A stretch of DNA of 64,000 nt from Miltoncostaea oceani (GTDB lineage: Bacteria > Actinomycetota > Thermoleophilia > Miltoncostaeales > Miltoncostaeaceae): NCBI RefSeq assembly GCF_018141545.1, contig NZ_CP064356.1, forward strand, positions 1,178,001-1,242,000, read 5' to 3'. The notes under the pieces are model-generated. The model was not told where the DNA came from and did not search any database. It was given only the letters and a program-made list of their open reading frames with translations. The translations under genes and the position numbers were made by a program. How positions within the stretch are numbered: position 1 is the stretch's first letter; every line of letters begins with the position of its first letter. Shown here piece by piece: positions 21,866-59,257 of the stretch.

Positions 21866-21883
21866 GTCATCACCGGGGGTGAC
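21866..21883. promoter_or_regulatory. imperfect palindrome related to the GTCATCCCCGGGGATGAC module
   Basis: GTCATCACCGGGGGTGAC, matching the palindrome at 45250 and 57354 at 16 of 18 positions. It is flanked on the left by GGCGCGGCGG and on the right by GCGCG, as at 57354. It sits between the divergent kinase operon and the regulator gene; candidate binding site of the local NarL regulator. Confidence 0.45.
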
Positions 21884-41189: not shown

Positions 41190-41368
41190 CTGCATCTCCT
41201 GCCGGGGCTCGGCCTGCCGGGAACGGGTCACGCCGGGTGGAGCTTCTGTGGGTTTCGGCGAATCTACGACCCGCGGGCTCCCACGCGCCACCCCTCGCGG
41301 ATCACCCGGGCCGCGCGGTCGTCTTACGTCGCCGGGCCCGGGCCGCCGGGTCCCGTCACGATGTGCGG

Positions 41369-41836
41369 GTGACCACGACGCCCCGGACCCTGTGGACCAT
41401 CGGCTACGAGCGCTTCCCGACGCCGGTCGCCATGCGCGAGGTGCTGGAGGAGGCGGGGATCGAGTGGGTCTGCGACGTGCGGGCCCTCCCGCAGAGCCGC
41501 CGGGCCGGGTTCTCGCGGCGGCGCCTGCAGGACGTGCTCGCCGACGGCGGGATCGTCTACGAGCACCGCCCCGAGCTCGGCAACCCCGCCCCCCTGCGCG
41601 AGGTGTTCAAGGCCGGCCGCCTCGAGGAGGGGCGCGAGGCGTTCCGGGAGCACCTGCTCGGCGCCCACGGGTGGGCCGTCGACGTCGTCGCCGAGCGGAT
41701 CGCGGAGCGGCCCACCGCGATGCTGTGCCTCGAGGACGACCCGGCCCTCTGCCACCGCGGCGTCATCATCGAGGAGCTCGTCCGCCGCAACCCCGACGTG
41801 CGCGTCGTGCGGTTGTCCGCTCCCCCGCCCGGGTAG
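41369..41836 (+). CDS. DUF488 family protein
   Basis: A 155-residue DUF488 protein. It starts with TLWTIGYERF, the diagnostic strand, then EWVCDVRALPQSRRAGFSRR, YEHRPELGNP and AMLCLEDDPALCHRGVIIEE; the two Cys and the His of LCLEDDPALCHR are conserved in the family. The function of DUF488 is not established, although nucleic-acid-related roles have been proposed. The GTG at 41369 is favoured; another in-frame GTG lies two codons earlier. The preceding 130 bp hold no other gene. Confidence 0.82.
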   Translation: MTTTPRTLWTIGYERFPTPVAMREVLEEAGIEWVCDVRALPQSRRAGFSRRRLQDVLADGGIVYEHRPELGNPAPLREVFKAGRLEEGREAFREHLLGAHGWAVDVVAERIAERPTAMLCLEDDPALCHRGVIIEELVRRNPDVRVVRLSAPPPG

Positions 41837-41869
41837 GCCGTGGTCCGGTCCGCGACGAGGAGGGTGGGG

Positions 41870-42010
41870 ATGGATCCGAAGAGGTCGGCCGACGAGCGCG
41901 AGGGTCCCGACGTGCAGCCGGAGCACCTGGAGGGCGAGGACGAGTGGCCGGAGGAGACCGGCCCCGCCGACGTCGACGCCGCCGAGGACCCCGCGACGCC
42001 CTCGCCGTGA
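41870..42010 (+). CDS. 46-residue acidic mini-protein
   Basis: A short gene with a strong ribosome site (GAGGAGGG at 41857-41864, 5 nt before the ATG). The product begins MDPKRSADEREGPDVQPEHL and is rich in Glu, Asp and Pro with one Trp (EDEWPEE); it is probably disordered. It lies 33 bp after the DUF488 gene on the same strand and may be co-expressed with it. No family recognised. Confidence 0.55.
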   Translation: MDPKRSADEREGPDVQPEHLEGEDEWPEETGPADVDAAEDPATPSP

Positions 42011-42015
42011 CGGGC

Positions 42016-42055
42016 CCGCCGGGGGCCGCGCTCAGGCGGGCGCGGCCCCCGGCGG
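42016..42055. terminator. 15-bp-stem hairpin between mini-protein and MFS genes
   Basis: Stem CCGCCGGGGGCCGCG/CGCGGCCCCCGGCGG with a 10-nt loop that contains the stop codon of the convergent MFS gene. Confidence 0.6.
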
Positions 42056-43234
42056 CTCCAGCAGGCGACGGGCGACGACCGCGATGACCGTGGCGAGCAG
42101 CACCATCCCGGCCGCGCCCGCCATCGCGGCGTGCGTCGAGAACGCATCGACCGTCGCGCCGCCCACCGCCGCCCCCGCGGCGAGCCCCGTCGTCACGCCC
42201 GTGCTGACCCACGTGTACGACTCCGTCAACGTCCCCTCGCGGGCGAGGTCGGACACCATCGAGTAGAGGGTCGCGAACGCCGGGGCGATGCACGACCCCG
42301 CGACGAACAGCGCCGGCGCCAGCAGCAGCGGCCGTGGGGCGACCGCCACCAGCACGTCCGCGGCCGCCGTCGCCGCCAGGAGCACCACCAGCCGCCCCCG
42401 CGGGTCGGACGGGGCGCGGCTCCGCGCCGTCGCGACGCCCCCCACCAGGCTCCCCGCCGCCCACGCCGCGAGCAGCGGGCCGACGAGGGCCGGGGATCCG
42501 TGCTCGTCGGCGTGGGCCGTCGTCGCCACCTCGATCGCCCCGAACGACGCGCCCATGCACACCGACGACGCGACGAGGGTCAGCAGGGCGGGGCTGCCGA
42601 GGGCCCCCGTCAGGGTCCGCACCGCCGCCGACGCCGGCCGCCAGTCGCGGGAGGACGGGGCCGTCGTGAACAGCAGCGTCCCACCGACCAGCAGGGCGGC
42701 CGCGGCGAGGAGGGCCACCGACGGCGACGCCACCCCCGCGAGTACGCCGACCAGCAGGAGGGGCCCCGCGATGAACGTGAGCTCCACACCCGCGGCCTCG
42801 ATGGCGAACACCGCGTGCCGCCGGTCGGGGGGCACGAGCTCCGGCCACAGGGCGCGCATCGCGCCGCTCAACGGCGGGTGCGCCATCCCGGCGAGCGCCG
42901 CCAGCACCACGAACACGGCGACGTGCGTGTCGTCGGGGACCAGCGCCGCCGCCGTCAGCGGCAGGGCGCAGAGGACCGCGCACGGCAGCAGCACCGCCCG
43001 CTGGCCGTGGCGGTCGACGAGGCGCCCCACCACGGGGCCGAGCAGGGCCAGGCCGACGGCGAAGGCGCCGGCGGCGGCGCCGCCCTCCGCGTAGCCCCCG
43101 CCCGTCTCGCGCACCCGCAGGATCAGCAGCAGGCCGATCGCCGTGTACGGCAGGCGCCCGAGCAGCGACGCCGACAGCGTCCGGCCGACCTGCGGGATGC
43201 CGAGGAGGGAGCGCAGCGAGGTCTCGGCGGCCAT
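42032..43234 (-). CDS. major facilitator superfamily transporter
   Basis: A 400-residue, about 12-helix MFS protein. The loop 2-3 motif GRLVDRHGQRAVL matches motif A, the loop between helices 6 and 7 is short (APSSRDWRPASAA), and the second half repeats the fold (LLAAWAAGSLVGGVATARSR). It looks like a drug/metabolite exporter of the Bcr/YcaD-like groups. The substrate is not predictable. It is divergent from the unknown gene at 43297. Confidence 0.85.
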   Translation of the reverse strand: MAAETSLRSLLGIPQVGRTLSASLLGRLPYTAIGLLLILRVRETGGGYAEGGAAAGAFAVGLALLGPVVGRLVDRHGQRAVLLPCAVLCALPLTAAALVPDDTHVAVFVVLAALAGMAHPPLSGAMRALWPELVPPDRRHAVFAIEAAGVELTFIAGPLLLVGVLAGVASPSVALLAAAALLVGGTLLFTTAPSSRDWRPASAAVRTLTGALGSPALLTLVASSVCMGASFGAIEVATTAHADEHGSPALVGPLLAAWAAGSLVGGVATARSRAPSDPRGRLVVLLAATAAADVLVAVAPRPLLLAPALFVAGSCIAPAFATLYSMVSDLAREGTLTESYTWVSTGVTTGLAAGAAVGGATVDAFSTHAAMAGAAGMVLLATVIAVVARRLLEPPGAAPA

Positions 43235-43284
43235 CAGGCCAGGCTCTCACAGCCGCCGCGCGCCGGCCGTCCGGGATCCGGCGC

Positions 43285-43290
43285 TACGAT
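43285..43290 (+). promoter_or_regulatory. -10 element TACGAT, gene at 43297
   Basis: TACGAT 6 nt before the ATG. Confidence 0.4.
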
Positions 43291-43296
43291 CGCCAC

Positions 43297-44187
43297 ATGA
43301 CCAGCAGCGGGTCGGCCGCCGCGGGCGGGGCGGGCTACGGACAGCACATGACACCGGGTGACCTCACCGTCCTGCTGCGCCTCGCCGGGGTCCCCGACGC
43401 CCACCACGCCGAGGCCCTCCGACGCGACCCCGGCCTCGTCGACCGGACGCTCGCCTCCGACGCCGCCGCCCACCACCTGCTGCGGCACGGCGCCGACGAC
43501 CCCGAGCGCGAGCCGCTCCTCCGGGCCTCGCCGTTCCTGACGTTCGCGGTCGCCGTCGAGCGGGTCGCCGAGGAGCTGCGCGGCGCGACGTACGTGCAGG
43601 AGTGGGTCGGCCCGCGTCAGCGCATCCCGCTGCTCGGCGCCGACGACCTCCGCGAGCTGCTCGCCGACGGCCGGCGGCGCGTGTTCCTCGCGACGCTCCT
43701 CACCTCCTACACGCGCGTCGCGAGCGGCAGCGTGTGGCGCGAGACGCCGCGGGGGTGGCGCCGCCAGCGCTACAGCGAGCTCGACCCGATGGAGCTGGCG
43801 TCCACGCTCGACGCGCTGCCCGAGGCCCGCCACCCCATGGTCCACCGCCGCCTCGGCGACCTGTCGCTGTTCCTCGCCGGCGTCTTCCCCGACCACACCG
43901 CGTCCCGGGCGTTCCGGCCGATCGACCTCCAGCGCCTCGGACGCGCCGCCGAGGTCGGCGGCACGTCCGGCGAGACGCTGGGGGAGGCCCTCGAGAGCCG
44001 GGGAGGCGTGGGCCTGCTCGATCAGCTCGGGGCGCGCTGGTACCGGCTCGCGGCGCGCGCGCAGGCCCCGGCGACGCCGCTGCTCGAGGCGATCGCCGAC
44101 CGGTTCGTGCAGGCCCGGCGGGCGCTGAACGTGCTCGCCGACCGCCACCTGTTCGCCGTCGCACGGGGCTGGTTCCCCGCGCCCTGA
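43297..44187 (+). CDS. conserved-looking soluble protein of unknown function
   Basis: A 296-residue alpha-helical protein without signal peptide or membrane helix. The first 17 residues are low-complexity (MTSSGSAAAGGAGYGQH), so the ATG at 43348 (MTPGDLTVLLRLAGVPDAHH) may be the true start. Regions that look conserved are RASPFLTFAVAVERVAEELR, VFLATLLTSYTRVASGSVWR, MVHRRLGDLSLFLAGVFPDH and LLDQLGARWYRLAARA. I do not recognise the family. Its 3' end overlaps the convergent PAP2 gene by 166 nt. Confidence 0.65.
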   Translation: MTSSGSAAAGGAGYGQHMTPGDLTVLLRLAGVPDAHHAEALRRDPGLVDRTLASDAAAHHLLRHGADDPEREPLLRASPFLTFAVAVERVAEELRGATYVQEWVGPRQRIPLLGADDLRELLADGRRRVFLATLLTSYTRVASGSVWRETPRGWRRQRYSELDPMELASTLDALPEARHPMVHRRLGDLSLFLAGVFPDHTASRAFRPIDLQRLGRAAEVGGTSGETLGEALESRGGVGLLDQLGARWYRLAARAQAPATPLLEAIADRFVQARRALNVLADRHLFAVARGWFPAP

Positions 44188-45005
44188 GCGAGGGCGACGC
44201 CGGCGAGGCCCGCCGCCCCGCCGAGCGCCGGCAGCGCCACGCGACCCCAGTCGCCACGGCTCGTGACCGGCGCCGGGCGGCGCAGGCGCACCGGGTGCGC
44301 GTGCAGCCAGGCGGCGGCCCCGACGCCGACGGCCATCACCAGGCCACCGGCCGCGGCGTCCACCACGAAGTGGTTCGCCGTCGCGACGATCGTGAGGAAC
44401 ACGACCACGGGGTACGCCAGGGCGAGGGATCCGAGCACCCGGTTGCGCGACAGGGCGAGCACGCCGCCGCCGATCAGCGCCGCGTAGCCGAAGTGCATCG
44501 AGGGGACGGCGGCGTACGGGTTGAACAGCCCCGACAGCGGACCGCCGTGCAGGTCGATCCCGCTGACGGTGCGCAGGGTGTCGTCGAGGCCCGGCAGCGA
44601 CGCGAGGCGCGGCGGCGCGACGGGGACCGCCACGAAGATCGTCAGGGCGATCGCGTTCGCGGCCAGGAAGCCGTCGCGGAGCACCCGGTACGCGGGGCGG
44701 CGCCGGCGGTACACCCACACGAAGAACGCCGCCGTCACCGGCAGGTGGGCGAGCAGGTAGAACTGGTTCATCGCCGGGACCAGGCCGTCGTGGCTCCGCG
44801 CCCACGCCTGGATCGCCGGCTCCCAGAACACGCCCGCGGCGCGCTCGGCGTCGACGATGGCGGCGGTGTTGCGCAGGGCGTCCTCGGCGTCGCCGATCAC
44901 CACGGCGCGCGACGCCTGGTAGGCGAGCAGCGCCATGGCGAAGACCGTGAGCTCGGCGACCCATCCCGTGGGTCGCGTCAGTCGTGCGGATCGTGTGCGG
45001 TTCAT
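44022..45005 (-). CDS. PAP2-superfamily membrane phosphatase/phosphotransferase
   Basis: A 327-residue protein of the PAP2_3 (inositolphosphotransferase/AUR1-like) type. The catalytic motifs are PSMHFGYA with His171 and ANHFVVDAAAG with His212 and Asp216; the first Lys/Arg motif is not evident, as in this subgroup. Five or six helices surround them. It probably acts on an isoprenoid or phospholipid phosphate at the membrane surface. About 55 C-terminal residues are antisense to the convergent gene and look unstructured. AGAAAGG precedes the ATG, and a TAGCGT hexamer stands at 45036-45041. Confidence 0.8.
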   Translation of the reverse strand: MNRTRSARLTRPTGWVAELTVFAMALLAYQASRAVVIGDAEDALRNTAAIVDAERAAGVFWEPAIQAWARSHDGLVPAMNQFYLLAHLPVTAAFFVWVYRRRRPAYRVLRDGFLAANAIALTIFVAVPVAPPRLASLPGLDDTLRTVSGIDLHGGPLSGLFNPYAAVPSMHFGYAALIGGGVLALSRNRVLGSLALAYPVVVFLTIVATANHFVVDAAAGGLVMAVGVGAAAWLHAHPVRLRRPAPVTSRGDWGRVALPALGGAAGLAGVALAQGAGNQPRATANRWRSASTFSARRACTNRSAIASSSGVAGACARAASRYQRAPS

Positions 45006-45035
45006 CGTCGAGCCTTTCTCCGTGCCGTCAACGCC

Positions 45036-45041
45036 ACGCTA
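45036..45041 (-). promoter_or_regulatory. -10 element TAGCGT, PAP2 gene
   Basis: TAGCGT on the minus strand, 30 nt before the ATG at 45005, which leaves room for the AGAAAGG ribosome site. Confidence 0.4.
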
Positions 45042-45145
45042 CGTCGGCTCCCGACGCGGCGAGTCGGTGAAGCCCCTAGTCCGGTCCCTGGTCCGCACCC
45101 GGGCCCCGTCGCGTGCTCGGGGGGGTGTGGCCGGTGACGGGGCCG

Positions 45146-45267
45146 ACGCTATGGCGGATCCGTCGCCACGCCATCCACCGTCACTCCGAACCGCCTCCGA
45201 CCGCGGGATGGTCCGCGGCGCGCGGCACCCATCCCGTGGGCCACCCCGCGTCATCCCCGGGGATGAC
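45146..45267 (-). promoter_or_regulatory. conserved promoter/activator module, copy A
   Basis: Listed on the plus strand: ACGCTA at 45146 (minus-strand -10 TAGCGT), GCCATC at 45170 (minus-strand GATGGC at -35, 18-bp spacer), GGGATGG at 45205, CATCCC at 45230 and GTCATCCCCGGGGATGAC at 45250, which extends to a 24-bp perfect palindrome at 45247-45270. All five offsets equal those of copy B at 57250. The promoter points toward the PAP2 gene, whose start is 141 bp away. Confidence 0.65.
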
Positions 45268-45321
45268 GCGGCCGCCGGGCCGGGGTCCCGCGCCGATGTC
45301 CGGGGGGAGGTCACGAACGCC

Positions 45322-45352
45322 ACGCTAGGACTTCGACCGAACTCGAAGTCAA
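45322..45352 (-). promoter_or_regulatory. MerR-type promoter with 19-bp spacer
   Basis: On the minus strand, TTGACT (-35), 19 bp, TAGCGT (-10). The spacer region holds an inverted repeat GACTTCGA/TCGAAGTC (45329-45336 and 45343-45350, 6-nt centre). An overlong spacer with a central dyad is the signature of MerR-family activation. No MerR gene is in the window. Confidence 0.5.
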
Positions 45353-45527
45353 GCCCCCGTGGCGCGTGCGTGACCACCTCGGTCCGAGACGCCCCGGCCC
45401 CCGGGCCCGGGGGGTCACTAGGCGGGGCGGACCCGGACGGGGTACTCTCGCGCGGCTTTCACGAATCCGTCACATCTCGGACGGCGCCCGCACACGCGGC
45501 GCCGCCCGGCGAACCCCGAGGACCCGC

Positions 45528-46397
45528 ATGCGCAGAGCCCGTCGCCTCATCGCCGCCCTCGCCCTCGTGGCCGTCGCGTCCGTCGCCCTCGCCGCCTGTG
45601 GCGACGACGACGACACCTCGGCCGCCTCGACCGCCGCGACGACCGCGACCGCCTGTGAGCGGAGCGATCTCGACCTGGTCGCGGACGACACGCTGACGAT
45701 CGGCACCGACTCCCCCGCGTTCCCCCCGTACTTCGTCGATGACGACCCGACCAACGGCGAGGGCTTCGAGAGCGCCGTCGCCTACGCCATCGCCGCCGGG
45801 CTCGGGTTCGCGCCCGACGAGGTCACGTGGGCGGTCGTCCCGTTCAACTCGTCGTATGCGCCCGGTCCGAAGGACTTCGACTTCGACATCAACCAGATCT
45901 CGATCACCCCCGAGCGGGCCGGTCAGGTCGACTTCTCCGAGCCGTACTACACGACCCCCCAGGCCGTCCTCGTCGCGGCGGGCTCCGACTACGCGGGCGC
46001 GACCAGCGTCGCCGAGCTGAAGGACGCGAAGATCGGCGTGCAGGTCGGCACCACCAGCCTCGACGCGGTCACGAGCGTCATCGGCCCTTCCTCCGAGCCG
46101 CAGGTCTTCAACGACTCGAACGACACGGTGCGGGCGCTGAAGAACGGCCAGGTCGACGCGATCGTCACCGACCTGCCCACCGCGATCTACCTGCGCGACG
46201 TCGAGATCGAGGGCTCCGAGGTCGTCGGCCAGTTCAGCGCCCCCGGCGGCGACGACTGGGGCGTCGTGCTCGCGAAGGACTCCGCCCTCACCCCCTGCGT
46301 CTCCTCGGCGGTCTCGGCCCTGCGCGAATCGGGTGAGCTCGCCGCCATCACCGAGCAGTGGATCGGCGCCGAGGCGCCGGAGCTGGACCTGGAGTAG
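45528..46397 (+). CDS. ABC amino-acid transporter, substrate-binding lipoprotein
   Basis: A 289-residue family-3 solute-binding protein. The lipoprotein signal ends VASVALAAC with Cys24, followed by an acidic DDDD and Ser/Thr/Ala linker. The mature domain has DTLTIGTDSPAFPPYFVDDD, FDFDINQISITPERAGQVDF and IGVQVGTTSLDAVTS, typical of polar amino-acid binders. It is the first gene of an operon with permease and ATPase; the gap to the permease is 24 bp. The ligand is likely a polar amino acid, not further resolved. Confidence 0.92.
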   Translation: MRRARRLIAALALVAVASVALAACGDDDDTSAASTAATTATACERSDLDLVADDTLTIGTDSPAFPPYFVDDDPTNGEGFESAVAYAIAAGLGFAPDEVTWAVVPFNSSYAPGPKDFDFDINQISITPERAGQVDFSEPYYTTPQAVLVAAGSDYAGATSVAELKDAKIGVQVGTTSLDAVTSVIGPSSEPQVFNDSNDTVRALKNGQVDAIVTDLPTAIYLRDVEIEGSEVVGQFSAPGGDDWGVVLAKDSALTPCVSSAVSALRESGELAAITEQWIGAEAPELDLE

Positions 46398-46421
46398 GCG
46401 GTCGCCGCCCCGCACGACGGC

Positions 46422-47267
46422 GTGACCACCGCATCCGCACGCCGGGTCGCCCGTGAGGCGGCCCGGCGGCGGCGTGCCCGCCGCGGCACGGTCGTCGCGG
46501 CGGTCTCCACCGTCGTCGTCCTCGGCGGGCTGGCGCTGCTGCTGGTCAACGCCCCCGGCTGGGACGACGTCCGCGAGACGTTCTTCTCGTGGGACGTCTT
46601 CCGGGAGTCGTTCCCCGACGTGCTGCGGGGCTTCTGGCTCGACGTGAAGCTCTTCGTGGTCGTCGAGGTCATCGTCCTCGTCGCCGCCCTCGGGGTCGCC
46701 CTCGTCCGCGTGACGGGCGCGCCGGCCCTGTTCCCCGTCCGGCTGCTGGCGACGGTCTACACCGACGTCCTGCGCGGCGTCCCGGTGATCCTGGTCGTCT
46801 ACCTCGTCGGGTTCGGCATCCCGGCCCTCGGGGTGCGGGGGTGGTTCGCCGACCCCGTCGTGCTCGGCGGCTTCGGCCTTGCCCTCTGCTACACCGCCTA
46901 CGTCGCGGAGGTCTACCGCGCCGGCCTCGACTCGGTCCACCCGAGTCAGAGGTCGGCGGCGCTCGCCGTGGGACTGACGGAGCGCCAGGCGATGCGCTTC
47001 GTGATCGTGCCCCAGGCGGTGCGGCGCGTCGTCCCGCCCCTCCTCAACGACTTCATCTCGCTGCAGAAGGACGTGGCCCTGGTCTCGATCCTCGGGCCGC
47101 AGGAGGCGTTCCGCGTCGCCCAGATCAACGCCGCGTCGGACTTCAACTACACGCCGTTCCTCGCGGCGGCGCTGCTCTACCTCGCGGTGACCGTGCCGCT
47201 CGCCCGCATCGTCGACCACCAGCAGGCGCGCGCCCGGCGTCGGCAGGGGCACACGGTGACGCCGTGA
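46422..47267 (+). CDS. ABC amino-acid transporter, permease
   Basis: A 281-residue HisM/GlnP-type permease. After a basic N-terminus and first helix it has the FWLDVKLFVVVEVIVLVAAL segment, VYTDVLRGVPVILVVYLVGF, and the EAA coupling loop RSAALAVGLTERQAMRFVIV. The GTG start is at 46422. The stop overlaps the ATPase start as GTGA. It works as a homodimer with the neighbouring ATPase and lipoprotein. Confidence 0.92.
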   Translation: MTTASARRVAREAARRRRARRGTVVAAVSTVVVLGGLALLLVNAPGWDDVRETFFSWDVFRESFPDVLRGFWLDVKLFVVVEVIVLVAALGVALVRVTGAPALFPVRLLATVYTDVLRGVPVILVVYLVGFGIPALGVRGWFADPVVLGGFGLALCYTAYVAEVYRAGLDSVHPSQRSAALAVGLTERQAMRFVIVPQAVRRVVPPLLNDFISLQKDVALVSILGPQEAFRVAQINAASDFNYTPFLAAALLYLAVTVPLARIVDHQQARARRRQGHTVTP

Positions 47268-48013
47268 AGCCGCCGGTGATCGAGGTGCGCGGCGTGACCA
47301 AGGCGTACGGCGAGCGGCAGGTGCTCCGGGGCATCGACATGGAGGTCGGGGAGCACCGGGCGACGGCCCTGATCGGTGCGTCCGGGTCGGGCAAGTCGAC
47401 GCTGCTGCGGTGCATCGACCTGCTGGAGGAGATCGACGACGGCGACATCCTGCTCGACGGCGAGGTGATCACCGACCCCGCGTGCGCGGTCGTCGGCGTC
47501 CGGCGCCGCCTCGGCCTCGTCTTCCAGGCGTTCAACCTGTTCCCGCACCTGTCGGTCATCGAGAACGTCGTCCTGGCGCCGGTGCGCGCCGGCGGCGTCG
47601 ACCGGGCCGAGGCGCGGGAGCGGGGACGCGACCTGCTCGCGCGGTTCGGCCTCGCGGGACGCGAGGACGACTACCCCGACCGCCTCTCCGGCGGCCAGCA
47701 GCAGCGCGTCGCGATCGTCCGGGCCCTCGCGACCCGGCCGCGGGCCCTGCTGCTCGACGAGGTCACGAGCGCCCTCGACCCGGAGCTCGTCGGGGAGGTG
47801 CTCGAGCTGATCCGCGGCCTGAAGGCGGAGGGCATGACGATGGTGATCGCCACCCACGAGATGGCGTTCGCGCGGGACGTCGCCGACGAGGTCTGCTTCC
47901 TGCACGAGGGCCGCGTCGTCGAGCGGGGCGACCCGGCGCGGATCTTCACCGCCCCCGAGCGCCCCGAGACCCAGCAGTTCCTGCGCCGGGTCCTCGCGTC
48001 CGGCCGCCTCTAG
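47264..48013 (+). CDS. ABC amino-acid transporter, ATP-binding protein
   Basis: A 249-residue GlnQ/HisP-type ATPase. Walker A is GASGSGKST near residues 38-46, Q loop VFQAFNLFPHLSV, signature LSGGQQQRV, Walker B ALLLDEVTSALDP and H loop ATHEMAFA. The Q loop FNLFPH is typical of polar amino-acid importers. It completes the operon. Confidence 0.95.
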   Translation: MKPPVIEVRGVTKAYGERQVLRGIDMEVGEHRATALIGASGSGKSTLLRCIDLLEEIDDGDILLDGEVITDPACAVVGVRRRLGLVFQAFNLFPHLSVIENVVLAPVRAGGVDRAEARERGRDLLARFGLAGREDDYPDRLSGGQQQRVAIVRALATRPRALLLDEVTSALDPELVGEVLELIRGLKAEGMTMVIATHEMAFARDVADEVCFLHEGRVVERGDPARIFTAPERPETQQFLRRVLASGRL

Positions 48014-48019
48014 GCCCCG

Positions 48020-48538
48020 CTACACGACCGGGCCGCGGCGCTCGAGCAGCAGCACGTCGCGCCACCGGCCGTCGCGCTTCGCCAGCCGCTCGCGCGTGCC
48101 GACGACGCGGAACCCGCACGCCTCCAGCATCTTCAGGCTCGCGGTGTTGTCGGGGAAGACGATCGCCTCCATCGTCCAGATGCCGGCCCGGTCCGCCTGC
48201 GCGGTGAGGGCGTCCATCAGCGCCTCGCCGACGCCCATCCCACGGGCCTCCGCCGCGATGTAGAGCGAGCACTCGACCCGGCCCCGGTAGACGGCGCGGT
48301 CGGAGACGCGGGCGACGGCCGCCCAGCCCATGATGCGCCCGTCGATCCGCGCGACGGGCCGGGGCGCCGGGAGGTGCGCCGCGTCCCACCGCCCCCAGGG
48401 CGGCACCTCGGTCTCGAAGGTCGCCCCGCCGGTCGCGATCCCCTCGGCGTAGATCTCGGCGACCCGCGGCCAGTCGGCGCGCCGCATGGCCACGATCTCG
48501 ACGTCCCGCTCCGCCGCGCCCTCCATGGCGCCCATCAT
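48020..48538 (-). CDS. GNAT acetyltransferase, phosphinothricin-acetyltransferase-like
   Basis: A 172-residue N-acetyltransferase of the Pat group: MRRADWPRVAEIYAEGIATG, GGATFETEVPPW, VECSLYIAAEARGMGVGEAL (motif A with the acetyl-CoA loop) and AIVFPDNTASLKMLEACGFR (motif B). Relatives acetylate phosphinothricin, methionine sulfoximine or other amino acids. Three in-frame ATGs (48538, 48535, 48526) compete; no clear ribosome site decides. It converges on the ABC operon 6 bp away. Confidence 0.85.
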   Translation of the reverse strand: MMGAMEGAAERDVEIVAMRRADWPRVAEIYAEGIATGGATFETEVPPWGRWDAAHLPAPRPVARIDGRIMGWAAVARVSDRAVYRGRVECSLYIAAEARGMGVGEALMDALTAQADRAGIWTMEAIVFPDNTASLKMLEACGFRVVGTRERLAKRDGRWRDVLLLERRGPVV

Positions 48539-48570
48539 GGCCGGTCCGCCGGCCGCGGGCCCGGTCGGGC

Positions 48571-49311
48571 CTAGGCGACGATCTCGACCGGGGTGCCGGG
48601 CCGCACCAGGTTGTAGAGGCGCGTGACGGCGGCGTTGTCGATGCGGATGCACCCGTTGCTGACCGCCTGCCCCAGCAGGTGCGACGCGGAGGTGCCGTGG
48701 ATCGCGACGAGGCCGTTGCCGCCCATGAACGTCTGCAGCACCGAGCTGTAGGCGGTCAGGGTGAGGATGTACGGGCCGAGGTACGACCGCTGGGACGCCG
48801 ACGAGGGCACGGGGTCCTGGATCGCGAAGAGGCCGGTCGGCGTGGGGGTCGCGTCGTTCCCGACGGCGGCCCGGTACGAGGCCACCTTCCGGCCGCCGCG
48901 CAGCAGCTCGACCTTCCGCCCGCTCACCGACACGCGCAGGCGCAGGGAGGTGGTGGAGAGCTTCACCGCGTCGACGGGGACGAAGCCGCTGGAGCGGTTC
49001 GGCCGCTCCGGCAGCCGCACCCGCACCCAGCCCTTGCCGGTGGCGTCCTCGGTCACGGCGCTCAGCACCAGCAGGCGCTGCGGCCGCCGCCAGAAGGCGG
49101 TGACCCGGTCGACGCGCGCGACGGCGCGCGACGACAGGCCGGGCGCGGAGCGGGCCGTGACACCGCGTGTCAGTGACGCCGTCCACGCCGACGCGTCGGT
49201 CGGGGGACCCGGCGCGGGCGGCCCCGCGGCGGCCGGGGCACCGGTCGCCGCGGCGGCGGACGCCAGCAGCACGATTGCGGAAACGGGCAGGAACGATCGG
49301 CGAGTGGGCAT
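48571..49311 (-). CDS. YkuD-family L,D-transpeptidase, exported
   Basis: A 246-residue exported enzyme. The signal peptide is RRSFLPVSAIVLLASAAAAT, with a twin-Arg that may be fortuitous. Residues 50-125 resemble an SH3-like module (VTARSAPGLSSRAVARVD). The YkuD domain ends with VAIHGTSASHLLGQAVSNGC (His205, Cys221) and IRIDNA, the complete catalytic set. It would form 3-3 cross-links or anchor proteins to peptidoglycan. The ATG at 49311 was chosen to begin at the signal peptide; the open frame extends 30 codons upstream. Confidence 0.88.
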   Translation of the reverse strand: MPTRRSFLPVSAIVLLASAAAATGAPAAAGPPAPGPPTDASAWTASLTRGVTARSAPGLSSRAVARVDRVTAFWRRPQRLLVLSAVTEDATGKGWVRVRLPERPNRSSGFVPVDAVKLSTTSLRLRVSVSGRKVELLRGGRKVASYRAAVGNDATPTPTGLFAIQDPVPSSASQRSYLGPYILTLTAYSSVLQTFMGGNGLVAIHGTSASHLLGQAVSNGCIRIDNAAVTRLYNLVRPGTPVEIVA

Positions 49312-49397
49312 CGCGGCATGAGACACGTCCGCCCGCGCCAACGCAAGCCGGATTGACAGTTCCCTCACACCGGGGGTGCCCGTACCTCCCAGAACGT

Positions 49398-53877: not shown

Positions 53878-56433
53878 CTACTCGTACTGCAGGGCGCGGA
53901 GCACGTCGAGCCGGGCGGCGCGCCGCGCCGGGGCGACGGCCGCGACGACGCCGACGACCACGGCCACCGCGGCGAAGGCGAGGAGGCTCCCGAGGGGGAT
54001 CTCCAGCCGCACACCCCACTCCGAGAGCGACCGGACGGCGAGGGCGGCGATGCCGATGCCGACCGGGATGCCGACCGCCGCGCCGATGAGGGCGGTGACG
54101 ACGCTCTCGCCGCGCACCATCCGCCGGGTCTGGCGGCGCGTCATGCCGACCGCCCGCAGCATTCCCAGCTCGCGGGTGCGCTCGTGGACGGCCAGCACCA
54201 GGGTGTTGACCATCCCGAACACGCTCACGACCACCGAGAGGGCCAGCAGCACGTAGAGCATGTTGAGGATCGTGGAGAGCTCCGCGGTGGTGTCGCGGGC
54301 GAAGTCCTCGGTCGTGCTCACCGTCGTGTCGGGGAAGTCGGTCAGCGCCCGCTCGATGCCCGCGGTGCCGCCGTCCGCCCCCGCCACGAACGTGTAGCGG
54401 TCCTTCGCCCGCGGGAAGCCGTCGTCGAACGCGTCCTGCGAGATGACGACGGGGCTCAGCACCGGCATCAGCCGGGGCGGGTCGTAGACGCCCACCACGG
54501 TGCGGGTGAGCGTGGCGCCCGAGGGGCTCGTGATCTCCAGCGACGACCCCACGGACAGGCCGTGGTCGTCCGCGAAGGTGCGCGTGACGAGGGCCCCGTC
54601 GCCCGCGAGGGACGCGAGCGACGCGGCGGACCCCTCGCTCCAGGTGAACGCGTAGGCGCGGTCGATGGTGCCGGGGTCCACGCCGCTCACGGGGACCGGC
54701 TCGCCCTGCACCAGCGCGCGGTCCTCGCGGACGCTCGAGACGAGCGCCTCGGGGTGTGCGGCGGCGACGGCACGGCCGGCGCCCGTCGGGGCCGGGTCCC
54801 AGCCGTTCGACGAGGTGATGACGTGCGAGGCCGCGACCTGGTCGGTGACGTCGGACCGGGCGGTCCCGATGAGGCCCGCGCCCAGCACCGAGACGAGCGT
54901 GACGAGGGCGAGCCCGATCATGAGGGCCGCCGCGGTGGCGGCCGTGCGGGAGGGGTTGCGGATGGTGTTCTCGCGGGCCAGCTCGCCGGCGACGCCGGTA
55001 CGGGCGATGGGCCAGCCGACGAGGCCGGCGATCGGCCGCACGAGGCGCGACGACACGACCGCGATGCCGACGAAGAGCGCCAGGGCCCCGCCGCCCAGCA
55101 TCAGCAGGCGCTCGGCGGCGCCGAGGCCGTCGGCCAGGAGGCCCCGGACGAGCATCGCGGCGGCGAGGAGCGTCGCGGCGCCCGCGACCACGCTCCGGCG
55201 CCGCGAGGCGCCGCCCTCGGCGGCCGCCGCGCCCTCGCGGACCGCGAGGATCGGCGGGACCCGCGTGGCCCGGACGGCCGGCACGACGCCCGCCAGGAGG
55301 GTCACGACCGTCCCGACCACCAGGGAGACGACGACCGTCGAGGTGGCGAAGACGGTGTCGCCCTGCGGCATGTCGAGGCCCATGGCGCGGAAGAGCGCCG
55401 TCAGGCCGGCGGCGAGCCCGAGGCCGAGCGCCAGCCCGAGGAGCGACGCGGTCAGCCCGATGATCGCCGCCTCGCCCATCACCGAGCGCAGCACCTGCCG
55501 GCGCGACGCGCCGAGGGTGCGCAGCGTCGCGAGCTCGCGGGAGCGCTGGGCGACGGTGATCGACAGGGTGTTGAAGATGACGAAGGCGCCGACGAACAGG
55601 GCGATGCCGCCGAAGGCGAGCAGGATGCCCCGGATGAACGTGATCGCCTCCGAGATGACCTGCTTGTCGGCGGCGGCCTGCTCCTCGCCGGTGCGGACGC
55701 CGGCGGCGTCGGGCAGGACGGCCGCGATGCGCGCGGCGAGGGCCTCGTCGGGGACGCCGGGCGCAGCGGCGACCTGGATCGCGTCGAAGCCGGTCTTGCC
55801 GAGCACCGCGCGCGCCGTCGGGATGTCGAACACGGCGATCGTCGCCCCGCCGAGCGAGTCGACGTCGCCGAACCGGGCGATGCCGCTCACGGTGTAGGAG
55901 CGCACCGGCCCCTCGGCCACCACGCGGATCGTGTCGCCCACCGCGAAGTCGTGGTCGGAGGCGGTGGTCACGTCGATGACGACCTGTCCGGGGCCCGACG
56001 CCCACGTGCCCTCGGCGAGGGTGAGCGGGTTGAAGCGGGGGTGGGCGGGGTCCACGCCGAAGCCGAAGGACGGCATGTCGCCGCCGATGACCGCGCCGTC
56101 GCGGTCGAGCATCCTCGCGGTGTTGCCCGTGCCCGAGAAGTCCACGAGCGTGCCGCCCGCCTCGGCGACCCCGGGGATCGCCTCGATGCGCGGGAGCAGC
56201 GACGCCGGGACGGTGGGGGTGCCGGCGAAGGCGTCGTCGACGACCGGTGTGCCGCGCACGACGAGGTCGGTGTTGGTGTACGAGCTGCTGAAGATGTTGG
56301 TGAACGCCCGATCGATCGTGTCCGTGAGGATGAGGCTGCCGGCGATCATGGCCACGCCCAGCACGATGGCGAGGGCGGTGAGGGCGGCGCGGGTGCGCCG
56401 CTCCATCAGGCTCCTGAGGGTGGCGAGGGTCAT
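53878..56433 (-). CDS. MacB/FtsX-type ABC exporter permease
   Basis: An 851-residue permease with two FtsX modules. It starts LRSLMERRTRAALTALAIVL with the first helix, followed by a large extracytoplasmic MacB-type domain (residues 45-250), three helices near 260-420 (LAFGGIALFVGAFVIFNTLS, SRELATLRTLGASRRQVLRS), a second pair of helices, a second periplasmic domain (about 500-700) and the last three helices (ERTRELGMLRAVGMTRRQTR). It would form a mechanotransmission-type exporter with the adjacent ATPase. Its ATG overlaps the ATPase stop (ATGA). Confidence 0.9.
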   Translation of the reverse strand: MTLATLRSLMERRTRAALTALAIVLGVAMIAGSLILTDTIDRAFTNIFSSSYTNTDLVVRGTPVVDDAFAGTPTVPASLLPRIEAIPGVAEAGGTLVDFSGTGNTARMLDRDGAVIGGDMPSFGFGVDPAHPRFNPLTLAEGTWASGPGQVVIDVTTASDHDFAVGDTIRVVAEGPVRSYTVSGIARFGDVDSLGGATIAVFDIPTARAVLGKTGFDAIQVAAAPGVPDEALAARIAAVLPDAAGVRTGEEQAAADKQVISEAITFIRGILLAFGGIALFVGAFVIFNTLSITVAQRSRELATLRTLGASRRQVLRSVMGEAAIIGLTASLLGLALGLGLAAGLTALFRAMGLDMPQGDTVFATSTVVVSLVVGTVVTLLAGVVPAVRATRVPPILAVREGAAAAEGGASRRRSVVAGAATLLAAAMLVRGLLADGLGAAERLLMLGGGALALFVGIAVVSSRLVRPIAGLVGWPIARTGVAGELARENTIRNPSRTAATAAALMIGLALVTLVSVLGAGLIGTARSDVTDQVAASHVITSSNGWDPAPTGAGRAVAAAHPEALVSSVREDRALVQGEPVPVSGVDPGTIDRAYAFTWSEGSAASLASLAGDGALVTRTFADDHGLSVGSSLEITSPSGATLTRTVVGVYDPPRLMPVLSPVVISQDAFDDGFPRAKDRYTFVAGADGGTAGIERALTDFPDTTVSTTEDFARDTTAELSTILNMLYVLLALSVVVSVFGMVNTLVLAVHERTRELGMLRAVGMTRRQTRRMVRGESVVTALIGAAVGIPVGIGIAALAVRSLSEWGVRLEIPLGSLLAFAAVAVVVGVVAAVAPARRAARLDVLRALQYE

Positions 56434-57210
56434 CGGGTCACCTCCGCGAGGGCGTCGAGCACCTCGGTCGACGTGGACCGGCCGAGCGTGCGCACGATGC
56501 GCCCGTCGGCGAGGAAGACGATCCGGTCGGCGATCGTCGCCGCCCGGGCGTCGTGCGTGACCATCACGAGCGTCTGCCCGTGGTCGTCCGCGGAGCGCCG
56601 CAGCAGGTCGAGCACCTCGGCGCTCGCGCGGGAGTCGAGGTTGCCCGTCGGCTCGTCGGCGAACATGACGGTCGGGCGCGAGAGCATCGCCCGGGCGATG
56701 GCCACCCGCTGCTGCTGACCGCCCGACAGCTGCGCCGGACGGTGCCGGCGCCGCTCCGAGAGGCCGACGGAGTCGATCACCTCGTCGAGCCACCGGGGGT
56801 CCGGGCGGCCGCCGGCGATGCGCGTCGGCAACGCGATGTTCTCCTCGGCGGTGAGGGTGGGGAGGAGGTTGAAGAACTGGAAGACGAAGCCGATGTGCCG
56901 GCGGCGGAGCTTCGTGAGGGCGGTGTCGCCCATCCCGGTGATCTCGCGGTCGTCGATCCAGACCTCGCCCTCCGTCGGGCGGTCGAGGCCCGCGAGGATG
57001 TGCATGAGCCGTCGACTTGCCGGAGCCCGAGGGGCCCATCACGGCGACGAGCTCACCACGCTCCACGGCGATCGAGACGCCGTCGAGCGCGCGCACCGCG
57101 GTCTCGCCGGCGCCGTGCAGGCGGACGAGGTCGCGGGCGACGACGACGGGGTGTTCGCGGGTGCCGCCGTCCGCGACCAGGGGGGTCACGAGGGGGGATG
57201 CGGTGGTCAT
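56430..57210 (-). pseudogene. ABC exporter ATPase with a one-base frameshift at Walker A
   Basis: Gene for a LolD/MacB-type ATPase broken by one extra G at about 57009-57010. From the ATG at 57210 (AGGAGG upstream) the frame reads to MGPSGSGKST; the rest continues in another frame from MHILAGLDRPTEGEVWID at 57005 through LSGGQQQRVAIARAM, VMFADEPTGNLDS and VMVTHDA to 56430. Removing one base restores GSGKSTLMHILAGLD. The downstream part alone lacks Walker A. Sequencing error, a recent mutation and translational slippage are all possible; everything else in the gene looks functional. Confidence 0.85.
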
Positions 57211-57249
57211 GGCGCTGCCTCCTGGAAGGGGTGGTCCGGTGATGGGGCG

Positions 57250-57371
57250 ACGCTACGACCGGCCCGCGCCGCCGCCATCGGCCGCCCTCCCGATCCGGCG
57301 GCGGCGGGGGGATGGTCCCGGCGGCGCCGTGCGCATCCCGCCGGCGCGGCGGCGTCATCCCCGGGGATGAC
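57250..57371 (-). promoter_or_regulatory. conserved promoter/activator module, copy B
   Basis: On the plus strand: ACGCTA at 57250 (minus-strand -10 TAGCGT, 39 bp upstream of the ATPase ATG), GCCATC at 57274, GGGATGG at 57309, CATCCC at 57334 and the palindrome GTCATCCCCGGGGATGAC at 57354, perfect over 22 bp (57352-57373). Offsets are identical to copy A at 45146. Likely target of the response regulator encoded at 58595, driving the exporter. Confidence 0.7.
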
Positions 57372-57415
57372 GCGCCACCGCCCGGACGGGCGACGTCGCC
57401 GCGGACCTCCCGATG

Positions 57416-57421
57416 TACCGT
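57416..57421 (+). promoter_or_regulatory. -10 element TACCGT, kinase gene at 57429
   Basis: TACCGT 7 nt before the ATG. Confidence 0.4.
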
Positions 57422-57428
57422 CCCTCCC

Positions 57429-58598
57429 ATGAGGCTGCTGGGAGGCACCATCGAGCGGGTATGGCTGGACGTCGTGGTCGTCGCGCTGTTCGCCTTCTGG
57501 GTCGGAGAGGTCTTCCTCAGCGAGGACATCGAGGGGGCGCCCGTTCCCCTCATCGCGTTCAGCCTGATCTGGGGGCTGCCCCTGCTGGCGCGGAGGCGTG
57601 CCCCGGTCCTGGCGCCCGCGCTCGTCATCGCCGGGGTGACCGCGCAGGCGCTCATCTGGCCCCGCTCGGTGCCCTACTCGTTCGCGACGTTCATGGTGAT
57701 CGCGATCTCGGCGGGTCTGCTCGGCGCGGCGCTGCGGGGCACCTGGCCGCGGCTGCTGGGCGCGGCGGGCCTGCTGGTGGCGGTGATCGTCGTCGTCTTC
57801 CGCGACCCCGACGGCAGCCCGACCAACCTCCTCTCGGTGATCCCGACCCTGGGCGTCGCCTGGCTCATCGGCCACCTCTACCGCGTCAACGCGCGGCGCA
57901 CCGCCGAGCTGCGCGAGCGCGCCGAGCGCCTCGAGCGCGAACGCGAGACCGAGGCGCGCGCCGCCGTCGCGGAGGAGCGGGCGCGCATCGCCCGCGAGAT
58001 GCACGACGTCGTCGCGCACAGCCTGAGCGTGATGGTCGTGCAGGCCGAGGCGGCGGAGGCGATGCTCGACACCGACCCGGAGCGGGCGCGACGGCCCCTC
58101 GGCGCCGTGCAGGACACCGGCCGCGGGGCGCTCACCGAGCTGCGCCGCATGCTCGGGGTGCTCCGCGAGATGGCCGACGAGGACCCCGCCCTCGCGCCGC
58201 AGCCCGGCCTGGCGGAGCTCGACGCGCTCGTCGGCCAGGTGCGCGCCGCGGGCCTGCCGGTCGAGGTGAGCGTCGCCGGCGACCCGCGCCCCCTGCCCCC
58301 GGGGATCGACCTGTCGGCCTACCGCATCGTGCAGGAGGGGCTGACCAACGCCCTGAAGCACGCGGGGCCGGCGCGCGCCCATGTGGCGCTCGAGTACGGA
58401 CCGCGGGAGCTGCGCCTCGAGGTGAGCGACGACGGTCGCGGGCACGACCCCTCCGACGACGGCCTCGGGCACGGCCTGCTGGGCATGCGGGAGCGGGTCG
58501 CCTGCTACGGCGGCGACCTCCAGGCGGGACCCCGCGACGACGCCGCCGGGTTCGCCCTGCGGGCGCGCCTGCCCCTCGACGCGGGGGCGGCGTCGTGA
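57429..58598 (+). CDS. NarL-family sensor histidine kinase beside ABC exporter
   Basis: A 389-residue kinase. Five or so helices span residues 10-150 with very short external loops, the pattern of intramembrane-sensing kinases that detect envelope damage. A coiled coil (RRTAELRERAERLERERETE) precedes the phospho-acceptor box ARIAREMHDVVAHSLSVM with His192. N box QEGLTNALKHAG and G box GHGLLGMRERVA are intact. The stop overlaps the regulator start as GTGA. It is divergent from the exporter genes, an arrangement typical of BceRS/LiaRS-like stress modules. Confidence 0.92.
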   Translation: MRLLGGTIERVWLDVVVVALFAFWVGEVFLSEDIEGAPVPLIAFSLIWGLPLLARRRAPVLAPALVIAGVTAQALIWPRSVPYSFATFMVIAISAGLLGAALRGTWPRLLGAAGLLVAVIVVVFRDPDGSPTNLLSVIPTLGVAWLIGHLYRVNARRTAELRERAERLERERETEARAAVAEERARIAREMHDVVAHSLSVMVVQAEAAEAMLDTDPERARRPLGAVQDTGRGALTELRRMLGVLREMADEDPALAPQPGLAELDALVGQVRAAGLPVEVSVAGDPRPLPPGIDLSAYRIVQEGLTNALKHAGPARAHVALEYGPRELRLEVSDDGRGHDPSDDGLGHGLLGMRERVACYGGDLQAGPRDDAAGFALRARLPLDAGAAS

Positions 58599-59257
58599 TC
58601 CGGATCCTGATCGCCGACGACCAGGAGCTCGTGCGCGACGGGTTCGGGATGATCCTCGACGCGCAGCCCGACATGGAGGTCGTCGGCGGCGCGCGCGACG
58701 GCCACGAGGCGATCGACATGGCCCGGGCGGAGCGCCCCGACGTGGTGCTGATGGACATCCGGATGCCCGGCCTCGACGGCATCTCCGCGACCCGCCGCCT
58801 GATGGGCGACGGGGACGACGCGCCGCGGGTGCTGATGCTGACCACCTTCGACGGCGACGAGTACGTCTACGAGGCGATGAAGGCCGGCGCCAGCGGGTTC
58901 ATGCTGAAGGACGTCCGCCGCGAGGAGCTGGTCAACGCGGTCCGGGTGGTGGCGGCGGGCGACGCCCTGCTCGCCCCGGCGCTCACCCGCCGCCTGATCG
59001 CCGACTTCGTGCGCCGTCCCCCGCCGGGGGCCGGCCCCGCCGGGGCGATGGCGGAGCTGACCGACCGCGAGCTCGACGTGGTGCGGCTCGTCGCGCGCGG
59101 GCGGTCCAACGCCGAGATCGCCGCGGAGCTGGTGGTCAGCGAGGCGACCGTGAAGACGCACGTGGCGCGCATCCTCGCCAAGCTCGGGTTGCGCGACCGG
59201 GTGCAGGTCGTCGTGGCGGCCTACGAGTCCGGCTTCGTCCAGCCGGGCGAGGGCTGA
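58595..59257 (+). CDS. NarL-family response regulator beside ABC exporter
   Basis: A 220-residue regulator with receiver (IRILIADDQELVRDGFGMIL, phospho-acceptor Asp54 in [32 protein letters not shown]) and LuxR HTH (ELTDRELDVVRLVARGRSNA). It is close in sequence to the regulator at 22447; their HTH helices differ at few positions ([15 protein letters not shown] versus [15 protein letters not shown]), consistent with related binding sites at 57354 and 21866. The gene is followed by two small paralogues in the same transcript. Confidence 0.93.
   Translation: MIRILIADDQELVRDGFGMILDAQPDMEVVGGARDGHEAIDMARAERPDVVLMDIRMPGLDGISATRRLMGDGDDAPRVLMLTTFDGDEYVYEAMKAGASGFMLKDVRREELVNAVRVVAAGDALLAPALTRRLIADFVRRPPPGAGPAGAMAELTDRELDVVRLVARGRSNAEIAAELVVSEATVKTHVARILAKLGLRDRVQVVVAAYESGFVQPGEG

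What the first reader, a model, noticed from the sequence alone, without database searches (positions are those of the whole stretch)
45006..45527. Copy A of the module has no adjacent kinase or exporter: orphan control region or fossil
In copy B the -10 TAGCGT lies 39 bp before the ABC ATPase start and the palindrome 58 bp before the kinase start. Copy A has neither gene. Minus-strand reading from 45146 finds no plausible protein before the PAP2 promoter, and the nearest plus-strand gene is 260 bp away. Either the module was recruited to control the PAP2 gene, or a whole exporter/kinase cassette was deleted and the control DNA remains. Three TAGCGT hexamers in 300 bp support a history of rearrangement.
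Basis: partly seen in the sequence, partly recalled or inferred. Interest (0 to 1): 0.55.

Follow-up and report, generated by a model that had tools for sequence, protein, structure and literature searches.

The report
Duplicated two-component promoter before a lipid-phosphatase gene
The stray control region looks like a copied switch: a short promoter that normally sits between a sensor-kinase gene pair and an exporter has been duplicated 12 kb away in front of a membrane lipid-phosphatase-like gene, and it probably places that gene under the same sensor; this is a neat but ordinary kind of regulatory rewiring.

Summary
Copy A (45122-45284, minus) and copy B (57228-57390, minus) are homologous: 74% over 163-167 bp, E=8.9e-17 in the genome. 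The homology stops before coding sequence. Four elements keep identical spacing in A, in B and in the B-orthologues of two congeners: operator GTCATCCCC|GGGGATGAC, CCATCC (+56), GATGGC (+92), -10 TAGCGT (+116).

The palindrome is most likely the operator of the adjacent VraR/LiaR/DesR-like regulator. In 41 related cassettes, GTCATCC-N4-GGATGAC is enriched near the kinase start and just after the regulator gene (17 of 41 cassettes; zones chosen after inspection).

Copy A is not an obvious fossil. No cassette remnant is detectable beside it. Congeners show no second cassette in the flanks available. A keeps 30 of 33 positions in conserved blocks against 55 of 90 elsewhere.

PAP2 orthologues in two congeners lie near metH, lack the module, and share a proximal element with the window gene. 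Best reading: a short promoter block was duplicated in this lineage and now acts as a regulator-controlled promoter for PAP2, between an older proximal promoter and an unexplained MerR-type promoter (45322-45352). The three TAGCGT are read as three tandem -10 elements. Function is inferred; no expression data exist.

The parts
44022..45005 (-). PAP2_3 (PF14378) membrane phosphatase-like gene, proposed target of copy A
   Evidence: Pfam E=2.7e-38; 61% identical orthologues in G001 and G002
45036..45041 (-). -10 (TAGCGT) of the proximal PAP2 promoter P1
   Evidence: 31 nt after the CGGACTAGGGG element, the same distance as CAGGCT and AAGGCT in the two orthologues
45073..45083 (-). CGGACTAGGGG, upstream element of P1 shared with PAP2 orthologues in G001 and G002
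45122..45284 (-). copy A: block homologous to copy B (57228-57390), 74% identity
   Evidence: E=8.9e-17 in own genome; 167 columns, E=3.3e-18 locally
45146..45151 (-). -10 (TAGCGT) of copy A promoter P2
   Evidence: same spacing from the palindrome (+116) in A, B and two orthologous cassettes
45170..45175 (-). GATGGC, -35-region element, 18 bp before TAGCGT
45206..45211 (-). CCATCC half-site-like element (+56 from palindrome start)
45250..45267 (-). palindromic operator GTCATCCCCGGGGATGAC, copy A
   Evidence: operator identity inferred
45322..45352 (-). MerR-type promoter P3: TTGACT, 19-bp spacer with dyad GACTTCGA...TCGAAGTC, TAGCGT
   Evidence: sequence; within 3 mismatches only one other place in four genomes of the genus, a 2-mismatch site in G000 before an SDR-like gene
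45528..46397 (+). amino-acid solute-binding protein gene, divergent neighbour, own promoter upstream
   Evidence: Pfam SBP_bac_3; orthologues in G001-G003; similar upstream sequence in G001 and G002
57228..57390 (-). copy B: the parental type of module between exporter and kinase
57354..57371 (.). palindromic operator, copy B
57250..57255 (-). -10 (TAGCGT) of exporter promoter in copy B
56430..57210 (-). ABC exporter ATPase; reading frame interrupted near 57015
   Evidence: ORFs from 57210 and 57005-56430; intact 260-aa orthologue in G001
53878..56439 (-). MacB/FtsX-type ABC permease
   Evidence: Pfam
57429..58598 (+). HisKA_3 sensor histidine kinase (DUF7134 N-terminal domain)
   Evidence: Pfam
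58595..59257 (+). NarL-type response regulator, VraR/LiaR/DesR-like; proposed ligand of both operators
   Evidence: Pfam; PDB best hits VraR, DesR, NarL, DevR
21866..21883 (.). two-mismatch version of the operator between a divergent kinase gene and the gene region of a paralogous regulator (62% identical)

Best explanation
Copy A is a duplicated, still intact operator-promoter of a NarL-type (VraR/LiaR/DesR-like) two-component system. The parental copy B lies between the divergent kinase-regulator pair (57429-59257) and its MacB-type exporter (57210-53878), where the phosphorylated regulator would bind the palindrome and flanking half-sites and switch on the exporter and the kinase-regulator genes. 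In this lineage a block of about 160 bp was copied 12 kb away, upstream of a PAP2-type membrane phosphatase gene. There it acts as promoter P2: transcription would start near 45139 and run through a leader of about 135 nt into PAP2, so the gene becomes a trans member of the exporter regulon. P2 is added to an older proximal promoter P1 (CGGACTAGGGG-N31-TAGCGT) and lies downstream of a MerR-type promoter P3. Shown: homology, spacing, association of the dyad with such cassettes, absence of detectable cassette remnants. Inferred: binding by this regulator, activation, start sites, direction of copying, physiological role in envelope stress.
For: A-B homology is 74% over 163 bp, E=8.9e-17 in the whole genome, ending outside coding sequence. 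Palindrome, CCATCC +56, GATGGC +92 and TAGCGT +116 have identical spacing in A, B and the G001 and G003 orthologues of B; A versus B without the palindrome scores z=9.5 over 500 shuffles. A matches 51 of 64 columns invariant in the three B copies; the next unrelated place in the window reaches 37 of 64. In runs of 6 or more columns invariant among B copies (defined without A), A keeps 30 of 33 against 55 of 90 elsewhere (Fisher one-sided P=9e-4; without the palindrome 22 of 25 against 45 of 80, P=0.003). Operator identity: in 41 cassettes of related regulators (38 from other genera, 3 paralogous cassettes of the same genus), GTCATCC-N4-GGATGAC with up to 3 mismatches occurs 18 times 1000-1500 bp upstream of the regulator, where the kinase begins (2.9 expected), and 9 times within 100 bp after the regulator gene (0.57 expected); 17 of 41 cassettes have at least one; 0 of 419 permuted half-sites gives as many. 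Exact copies also lie beside the regulator of a Chloroflexi MAG and of Paraconexibacter. The importer flanks available in three congeners hold neither PAP2 nor module, and PAP2 orthologues elsewhere have only the proximal element.
Against: No expression or binding data. The leader (about 135 nt) is much longer than in copy B (about 33 nt) and has no special fold (z=0.47). Copy A is found in one genome only, so conservation of an A-PAP2 link cannot be tested. The broader column test is weaker (51 of 64 against 33 of 58, P=0.010; without palindrome P=0.042). The dyad and the two zones were defined after looking at the same loci, some cassettes share a genus, and 24 of 41 show no dyad in the zones; one permuted half-site (CATCCGT) has a higher ratio to background, from 6 hits over 2. 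The dyad alone is not specific: 57 places within 2 mismatches in G000. GATGGC-N18-TAGCGT also occurs exactly at two unrelated loci without the palindrome. Of 21 loci with the exact palindrome in the GTDB scan, 17 hold no related regulator and in one it is 5.5 kb away.
Confidence: 0.6

Rival explanations
1. Copy A is a non-functional remnant (fossil): a whole second exporter/kinase cassette, or a promoter fragment, was once here, and its genes were lost; what remains decays neutrally.
For: Copy A exists in one genome only; no gene starts at the distance seen in copy B; the leader after the -10 has lost the ribosome-binding-like sequence seen in copy B (by eye); the region differs from that of the congeners.
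Against: No coding remnant of kinase, regulator, ATPase or permease; homology stops before coding sequence on both sides; no second cassette upstream of the importer in the flanks available from three congeners (10.1, 6.7 and 1.5 kb); functional blocks preferentially kept.
Confidence: 0.2
2. Copy A works only as a distal operator: the regulator binds at 45250-45267 and acts on P1 at 45036 (or represses P3 at 45322), while the TAGCGT at 45146 is not itself used.
For: P1 is the promoter shared with the orthologues, by its CGGACTAGGGG element; P3 ends 54 bp upstream of the palindrome, so a bound regulator would lie in its transcribed region.
Against: The exact 92/116-bp geometry to GATGGC-N18-TAGCGT is kept in A, as in copy B where that -10 is the one next to the gene.
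Confidence: 0.1
3. The promoters serve a short leaderless gene or RNA inside 45314-45039 rather than PAP2.
For: The GTG at 45314 is 7 nt after the P3 -10, the same distance as the ATG of an SDR-like gene behind the other MerR-type site of the genome.
Against: No Pfam match for the longer form of the frame; no Rfam match; no unusual fold of the part tested, 44990-45140; in this GC-rich DNA long open frames arise by chance, for example 57 frames of 60 or more codons overlap 40000-50000.
Confidence: 0.06

Closest known systems
VraR/LiaR/CesR-type cell-envelope two-component systems (Firmicutes)
   Same: NarL-type regulator with HisKA_3 kinase; best solved relatives are VraR and DesR; the regulators are reported to use an inverted repeat of about 16 bp (S. 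mutans LiaR within a 25-bp motif, CesR TCAGHCTnnAGDCTGA; passages of PMC4447274); TCA...TGA ends are shared with the dyad here
   Different: Different half-site (GTCATCC), GC-rich host, kinase and regulator divergent from a MacB-type exporter; binding not shown. S. mutans LiaR did not bind the 16-bp repeat alone
MadRS system of Enterococcus faecalis
   Same: Two-component system whose reported regulon combines a MacAB-like ABC exporter (madEFG) with membrane- or wall-modifying genes (dlt, mprF2, salA) (passages of PMC10614854); the window regulator scores 145 bits on the MadR model
   Different: Regulator far below the MadR equivalog cut-off (145 of 300 bits); in that paper dltA did not change in the madR knockout; target here is a PAP2-type gene, from sequence only
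BcrC-type PAP2 phosphatases in envelope stress regulons
   Same: PAP2-superfamily membrane protein proposed as envelope-stress target; BcrC overexpression is linked to bacitracin tolerance (passage of PMC3670847; title and abstract start of PMC5723303 in a listing)
   Different: The window gene is PAP2_3 (PF14378), with a weak, far sub-cut-off match to phosphoinositol dihydroceramide synthase (25 of 480 bits); substrate unknown
MerR-family promoters with 19-bp spacer
   Same: P3 has TTGACT, a 19-bp spacer, TAGCGT and a dyad centred in the spacer (definition recalled)
   Different: No merR gene was sought, and no credible gene lies directly behind it

Membership tests
Regulon of the window NarL-type regulator (promoter of the copy B type) | Operator identical to copy B | tested here: met
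   18 of 18, only two exact copies in the genome
Regulon of the window NarL-type regulator (promoter of the copy B type) | Conserved geometry of operator, CCATCC, GATGGC, TAGCGT | tested here: met
   +56, +92, +116 in 4 of 4 copies
Regulon of the window NarL-type regulator (promoter of the copy B type) | Gene directly behind the promoter | tested here: inconclusive
   PAP2 is in the right orientation but 140 nt from the -10 instead of 39
Regulon of the window NarL-type regulator (promoter of the copy B type) | Binding and regulation by that regulator | not testable with these tools
   needs wet-lab work
VraR/LiaR/DesR-like NarL-family response regulator | Receiver domain plus LuxR/GerE HTH | tested here: met
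   PF00072 E=5.7e-28, PF00196 E=1.9e-18
VraR/LiaR/DesR-like NarL-family response regulator | Equivalog score of a named system (NarL, MadR, MctR) | tested here: not met
   160 of 250, 145 of 300, 158 of 300 bits; so it is called 'like', not a member
Exporter/kinase cassette remnant (fossil) | Residual coding homology beside copy A | tested here: not met
   best E 0.12 for cassette proteins
MerR-type promoter (P3) | 19-bp spacer with dyad between -35 and -10 | tested here: met
   TTGACT-N19-TAGCGT, 45322-45352
MerR-type promoter (P3) | Cognate MerR regulator identified | not tested
   no regulator search was made

The most novel reading that the evidence does not exclude
A compact operator-promoter cartridge of about 160 bp was copied on its own and captured by an unrelated membrane-phosphatase gene, giving it three stacked inputs (an envelope-stress-type regulator, a MerR-type sensor and its old proximal promoter). 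The dyad GTCATCC-N4-GGATGAC would be the general operator of a widespread, largely uncharacterised Actinomycetota family of kinase-regulator-exporter cassettes.
Probability: 0.35. Interest if true: 0.45.

Novelty: new member of a known kind. Interest (0 to 1): 0.32.

Why it matters
If true it is a clean natural example of regulatory rewiring by duplication of a bare promoter block. It also predicts a concrete operator for a two-component/exporter family: a close regulator homologue (E<=1e-72, at most 7 candidates scored per genome) was found in 64 of 396 genomes sampled across the phylum. For the MacB-like exporter it predicts a trans target, a PAP2 membrane phosphatase, which points towards envelope or lipid stress as the signal.

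Tried and rejected
Leader as RNA element: 44990-45140 folds no better than shuffles (z=0.47), no Rfam match in 44900-45600, no terminator-like or sigma-70-like pattern in 44900-45560 by simple scan.

Cassette remnant: rejected, no coding similarity.

A second cassette in G001: the importer contig C117 ends in a permease fragment, but its 896 bp match the copy B cassette contig C164 at 93%, so it looks like a strain-variant contig overlap of the same cassette, not a second one.

TAGCGT counts as evidence of rearrangement: rejected as such; the hexamer is at chance frequency in the window. Reading, the other three copies (4912, 26825, 57250) are followed 11-39 nt later by a possible start codon in the same direction.

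PAP2 elsewhere with the operator: of 34 rows examined over up to 500 bp upstream (33 distinct places, L014 and L059 being one), only the window locus has a near-perfect dyad; one other (L011) has a 3-mismatch site, within what chance gives. None of the 21 exact-palindrome loci from the GTDB scan has a PAP2 match.

Is PAP2 near metH in this genome as in G001 and G002 (one small gene between)? No: metH is at C1:3514320 and none of the 7 PAP2 matches of G000 is near it. Which position is ancestral was not resolved.

GATGGC-N18-TAGCGT as a diagnostic of the module alone: rejected, two further exact places lack the palindrome.

Rows dropped before the enrichment count: the window and genus orthologues of copy B, two further own-genome paralogue loci (L073, L074), and short loci replaced by longer stretches of the same place. 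Only a part of the regulator matches was fetched.

Literature for the dyad: searches listed no paper that I recognised as describing it; the library holds open-licence papers only. A paper on AbrB1/B2 of Streptomyces reports that no motif was found (passage of PMC7581861). Passages of PMC10128005 (HexRK) were seen and not used.

Organism: not established. A guess of Miltoncostaea is recalled only; the paper search for it (listing only) was not used.

Full report
What is there. The window lies at G000:C1:1178001-1242000 of a 4.54-Mb genome; the window is 71-80% GC. Between the minus-strand PAP2_3 gene (45005-44022) and the plus-strand solute-binding gene (45528) there are 522 bp with no convincing gene. 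Read on the minus strand, in order: a MerR-type promoter (45352-45322), a perfect 18-bp palindrome (45267-45250), a CCATCC element (45211-45206), GATGGC (45175-45170), TAGCGT (45151-45146), a CGGACTAGGGG element (45083-45073), TAGCGT (45041-45036), and the PAP2 start codon (45005).

The two copies are homologous. A blastn search of the whole genome with 45006-45440 returns copy B as the best other place: 163 bp, 74% identity, E=8.9e-17. A local comparison of 8.5 kb around A with 9 kb around B finds the same block (45122-45284 against 57228-57390, 167 columns, E=3.3e-18). The other local matches are the palindrome region in reverse, a 439-column match between the two ATPase genes, and four short weak ones (E 0.002-0.005). 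The block starts 17 bp upstream of the palindrome and ends 24 bp downstream of the -10, inside the untranslated leader of copy B. What was copied was, as far as can be seen, a promoter block and not a cassette.

Copy B is a conserved promoter of a real cassette. In G001 the orthologous cassette has the same palindrome, and in G003 the orthologue has a degenerate palindrome (14 of 18) but the same promoter elements. In all four copies CCATCC, GATGGC and TAGCGT are 56, 92 and 116 bp from the palindrome start. In 122 ungapped columns A and B agree at 84, B and G001 at 84, B and G003 at 87, A and G001 at 72, A and G003 at 74. A is thus closest to B, which fits a duplication in this lineage, although four sequences are too few to date it.

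The palindrome is probably an operator of this class of response regulator. The regulator beside copy B is of the NarL type, with VraR, DesR, NarL and DevR as best solved relatives. I took cassettes of regulators at least 55% identical to it, outside the orthologous copies of B, and oriented them by the regulator gene: 41 cassettes, 38 of them from other genera and 3 paralogous ones from G000, G001 and G002. Sites matching GTCATCC-N4-GGATGAC with at most 3 of 14 mismatches number 18 in the zone 1000-1500 bp upstream of the regulator start, where the kinase gene begins (2.9 expected from the background of the same loci, P=2e-9). They number 9 within 100 bp after the regulator gene (0.57 expected, P=1e-8). 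13 cassettes have a site in the first zone, 8 in the second, 17 in either; 24 have none. With at most 2 mismatches there are 7 and 3, against 2 in the background outside the regulator genes. None of 419 permutations of the half-site gives as many zone hits (best 12); by ratio to background one, CATCCGT, is higher, from 6 hits over a background of 2 (individual sites). The dyad and the zones were chosen after seeing on the same loci, and some cassettes come from the same genus, so the P values are optimistic. In the scan of named genomes, 4 of 21 loci with the exact 18-mer hold a related regulator: the G001 contig itself, a Chloroflexi MAG, Paraconexibacter, and Isoptericola, where it is 5.5 kb away. 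The other 17 do not, as expected for a short palindrome found in many phyla. Inside the window a two-mismatch version (21866-21883) lies upstream of another divergent kinase gene, whose neighbouring regulator is 62% identical. The dyad alone does not define a regulon: 57 places in G000 lie within 2 mismatches.

Copy A looks maintained. Blocks of 6 or more columns invariant among the three B-type copies, chosen without looking at A, are GTCATCCC, CCATCC, GCGGCCGATGGC and TAGCGTC. A keeps 30 of these 33 positions but only 55 of the other 90 (one-sided Fisher P=9e-4; without the palindrome 22 of 25 against 45 of 80, P=0.003). With runs of 7 or more the values are 24 of 27 and 61 of 96, P=0.008. 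The plain test on all invariant columns is weaker (51 of 64 against 33 of 58, P=0.010; 37 of 50 against 29 of 54 without the palindrome, P=0.042). This argues for selection but does not prove it.

What lies behind copy A. PAP2 is the nearest credible gene in the right direction. Its orthologues in G001 and G002 (61%) lie near metH, one small gene away; their upstream DNA has no module but has CGGACTAGGGG at -52, preceded by CAGGGA, and 31 nt later CAGGCT or AAGGCT. The window gene has CGGACTAGGGG at -78, also preceded by CAGGGA, and 31 nt later TAGCGT at 45036. I therefore read 45036 as the older proximal promoter P1 and copy A as an added promoter P2 with a leader of about 135 nt. In G003, G001 and G002 the importer block (binding protein, permease, ATPase and the gene like 48571; in G003 and G001 also the gene like 49398, in G001 as a fragment) is kept, but neither PAP2 nor the module is found in the flank held upstream of it: 10.1 kb, 1.5 kb and 6.7 kb. 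In G003 the sequence just upstream of the importer reads as coding for another protein. In G003 the copy B cassette lies on the far side of the importer as in the window. In G001 the importer contig ends in a permease fragment that matches the cassette contig at 93%. So one cassette in the same place is the pattern in these genomes. The junction with PAP2 and copy A is seen only in the window genome among the four of the genus held.

The third TAGCGT. At 45322-45352 there is TTGACT-N19-TAGCGT with the dyad GACTTCGA-GTTCGG-TCGAAGTC, the classical layout of a MerR-controlled promoter (recalled). Only one other place in four genomes of the genus fits within 3 mismatches: G000:C1:2757784, whose -10 is 7 nt before the ATG of a short-chain-dehydrogenase-like gene (by eye). 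In copy A's region a GTG lies at the same 7 nt, but its 91-codon frame runs through the palindrome and promoter of copy A and has no Pfam match in its longer form. P3 may be the true leftover here: a promoter cut off from its gene, now firing towards PAP2. The -10 regions of P1 and P3 share 12 bp (TAGCGTGGCGTT), which may be chance.

How it most likely works. When the kinase senses its signal, the phosphorylated regulator would bind the palindrome and flanking half-sites at B and A. At B it would raise exporter and kinase-regulator transcription; at A it would raise PAP2 from P2. The known systems that this resembles in function are VraSR/LiaSR and MadRS; the MadRS regulon is reported to combine a MacAB-like exporter with genes that alter lipids or wall polymers (passages seen: PMC10614854, PMC4447274, PMC3670847). 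Membership in a named system is not claimed: the regulator is far below the curated cut-offs for NarL, MadR and MctR.

Verdict. It is an instructive but ordinary event of promoter duplication. The more general result is the predicted operator for a common family of kinase-regulator-exporter cassettes.

Noticed in passing
57210-56430 (minus), near 57015: The ABC exporter ATPase frame is interrupted just after the Walker A motif: the start of the protein and the rest lie in two frames. An intact 260-aa orthologue exists in G001. Sequencing error or real inactivation cannot be told apart.
   Followed up: partly
45322-45352 (minus): Strict MerR-type promoter without an adjacent target gene; the only other such site in the four genomes of the genus lies before a leaderless SDR-like gene.
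   Followed up: partly
45073-45083 (minus); L054 and L055 upstream of PAP2: CGGACTAGGGG element 31 nt before the -10, shared by PAP2 genes of three species; probably a site for another activator.
   Followed up: partly
21866-21883: Two-mismatch version of the operator between a divergent kinase gene (start near 21733) and a frame with cyclase-like sequence (by eye) that precedes the paralogous regulator (22441-23094).
   Followed up: partly
L182 1501 (G000:C1:3305160) and L176 1501 (G002:C285:7688): GATGGC-N18-TAGCGT exact at two further genes (methyltransferase-like; a CMD/AhpD-like gene behind a LuxR-type gene, names by eye), both preceded by GACGAAGATGG; looks like another regulator's direct-repeat promoter class.
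   Followed up: no
57410-57431, and L062 and L063 at the kinase starts: The kinase genes appear leaderless: TACCGT is followed by 6-7 nt before the ATG in three species.
   Followed up: no
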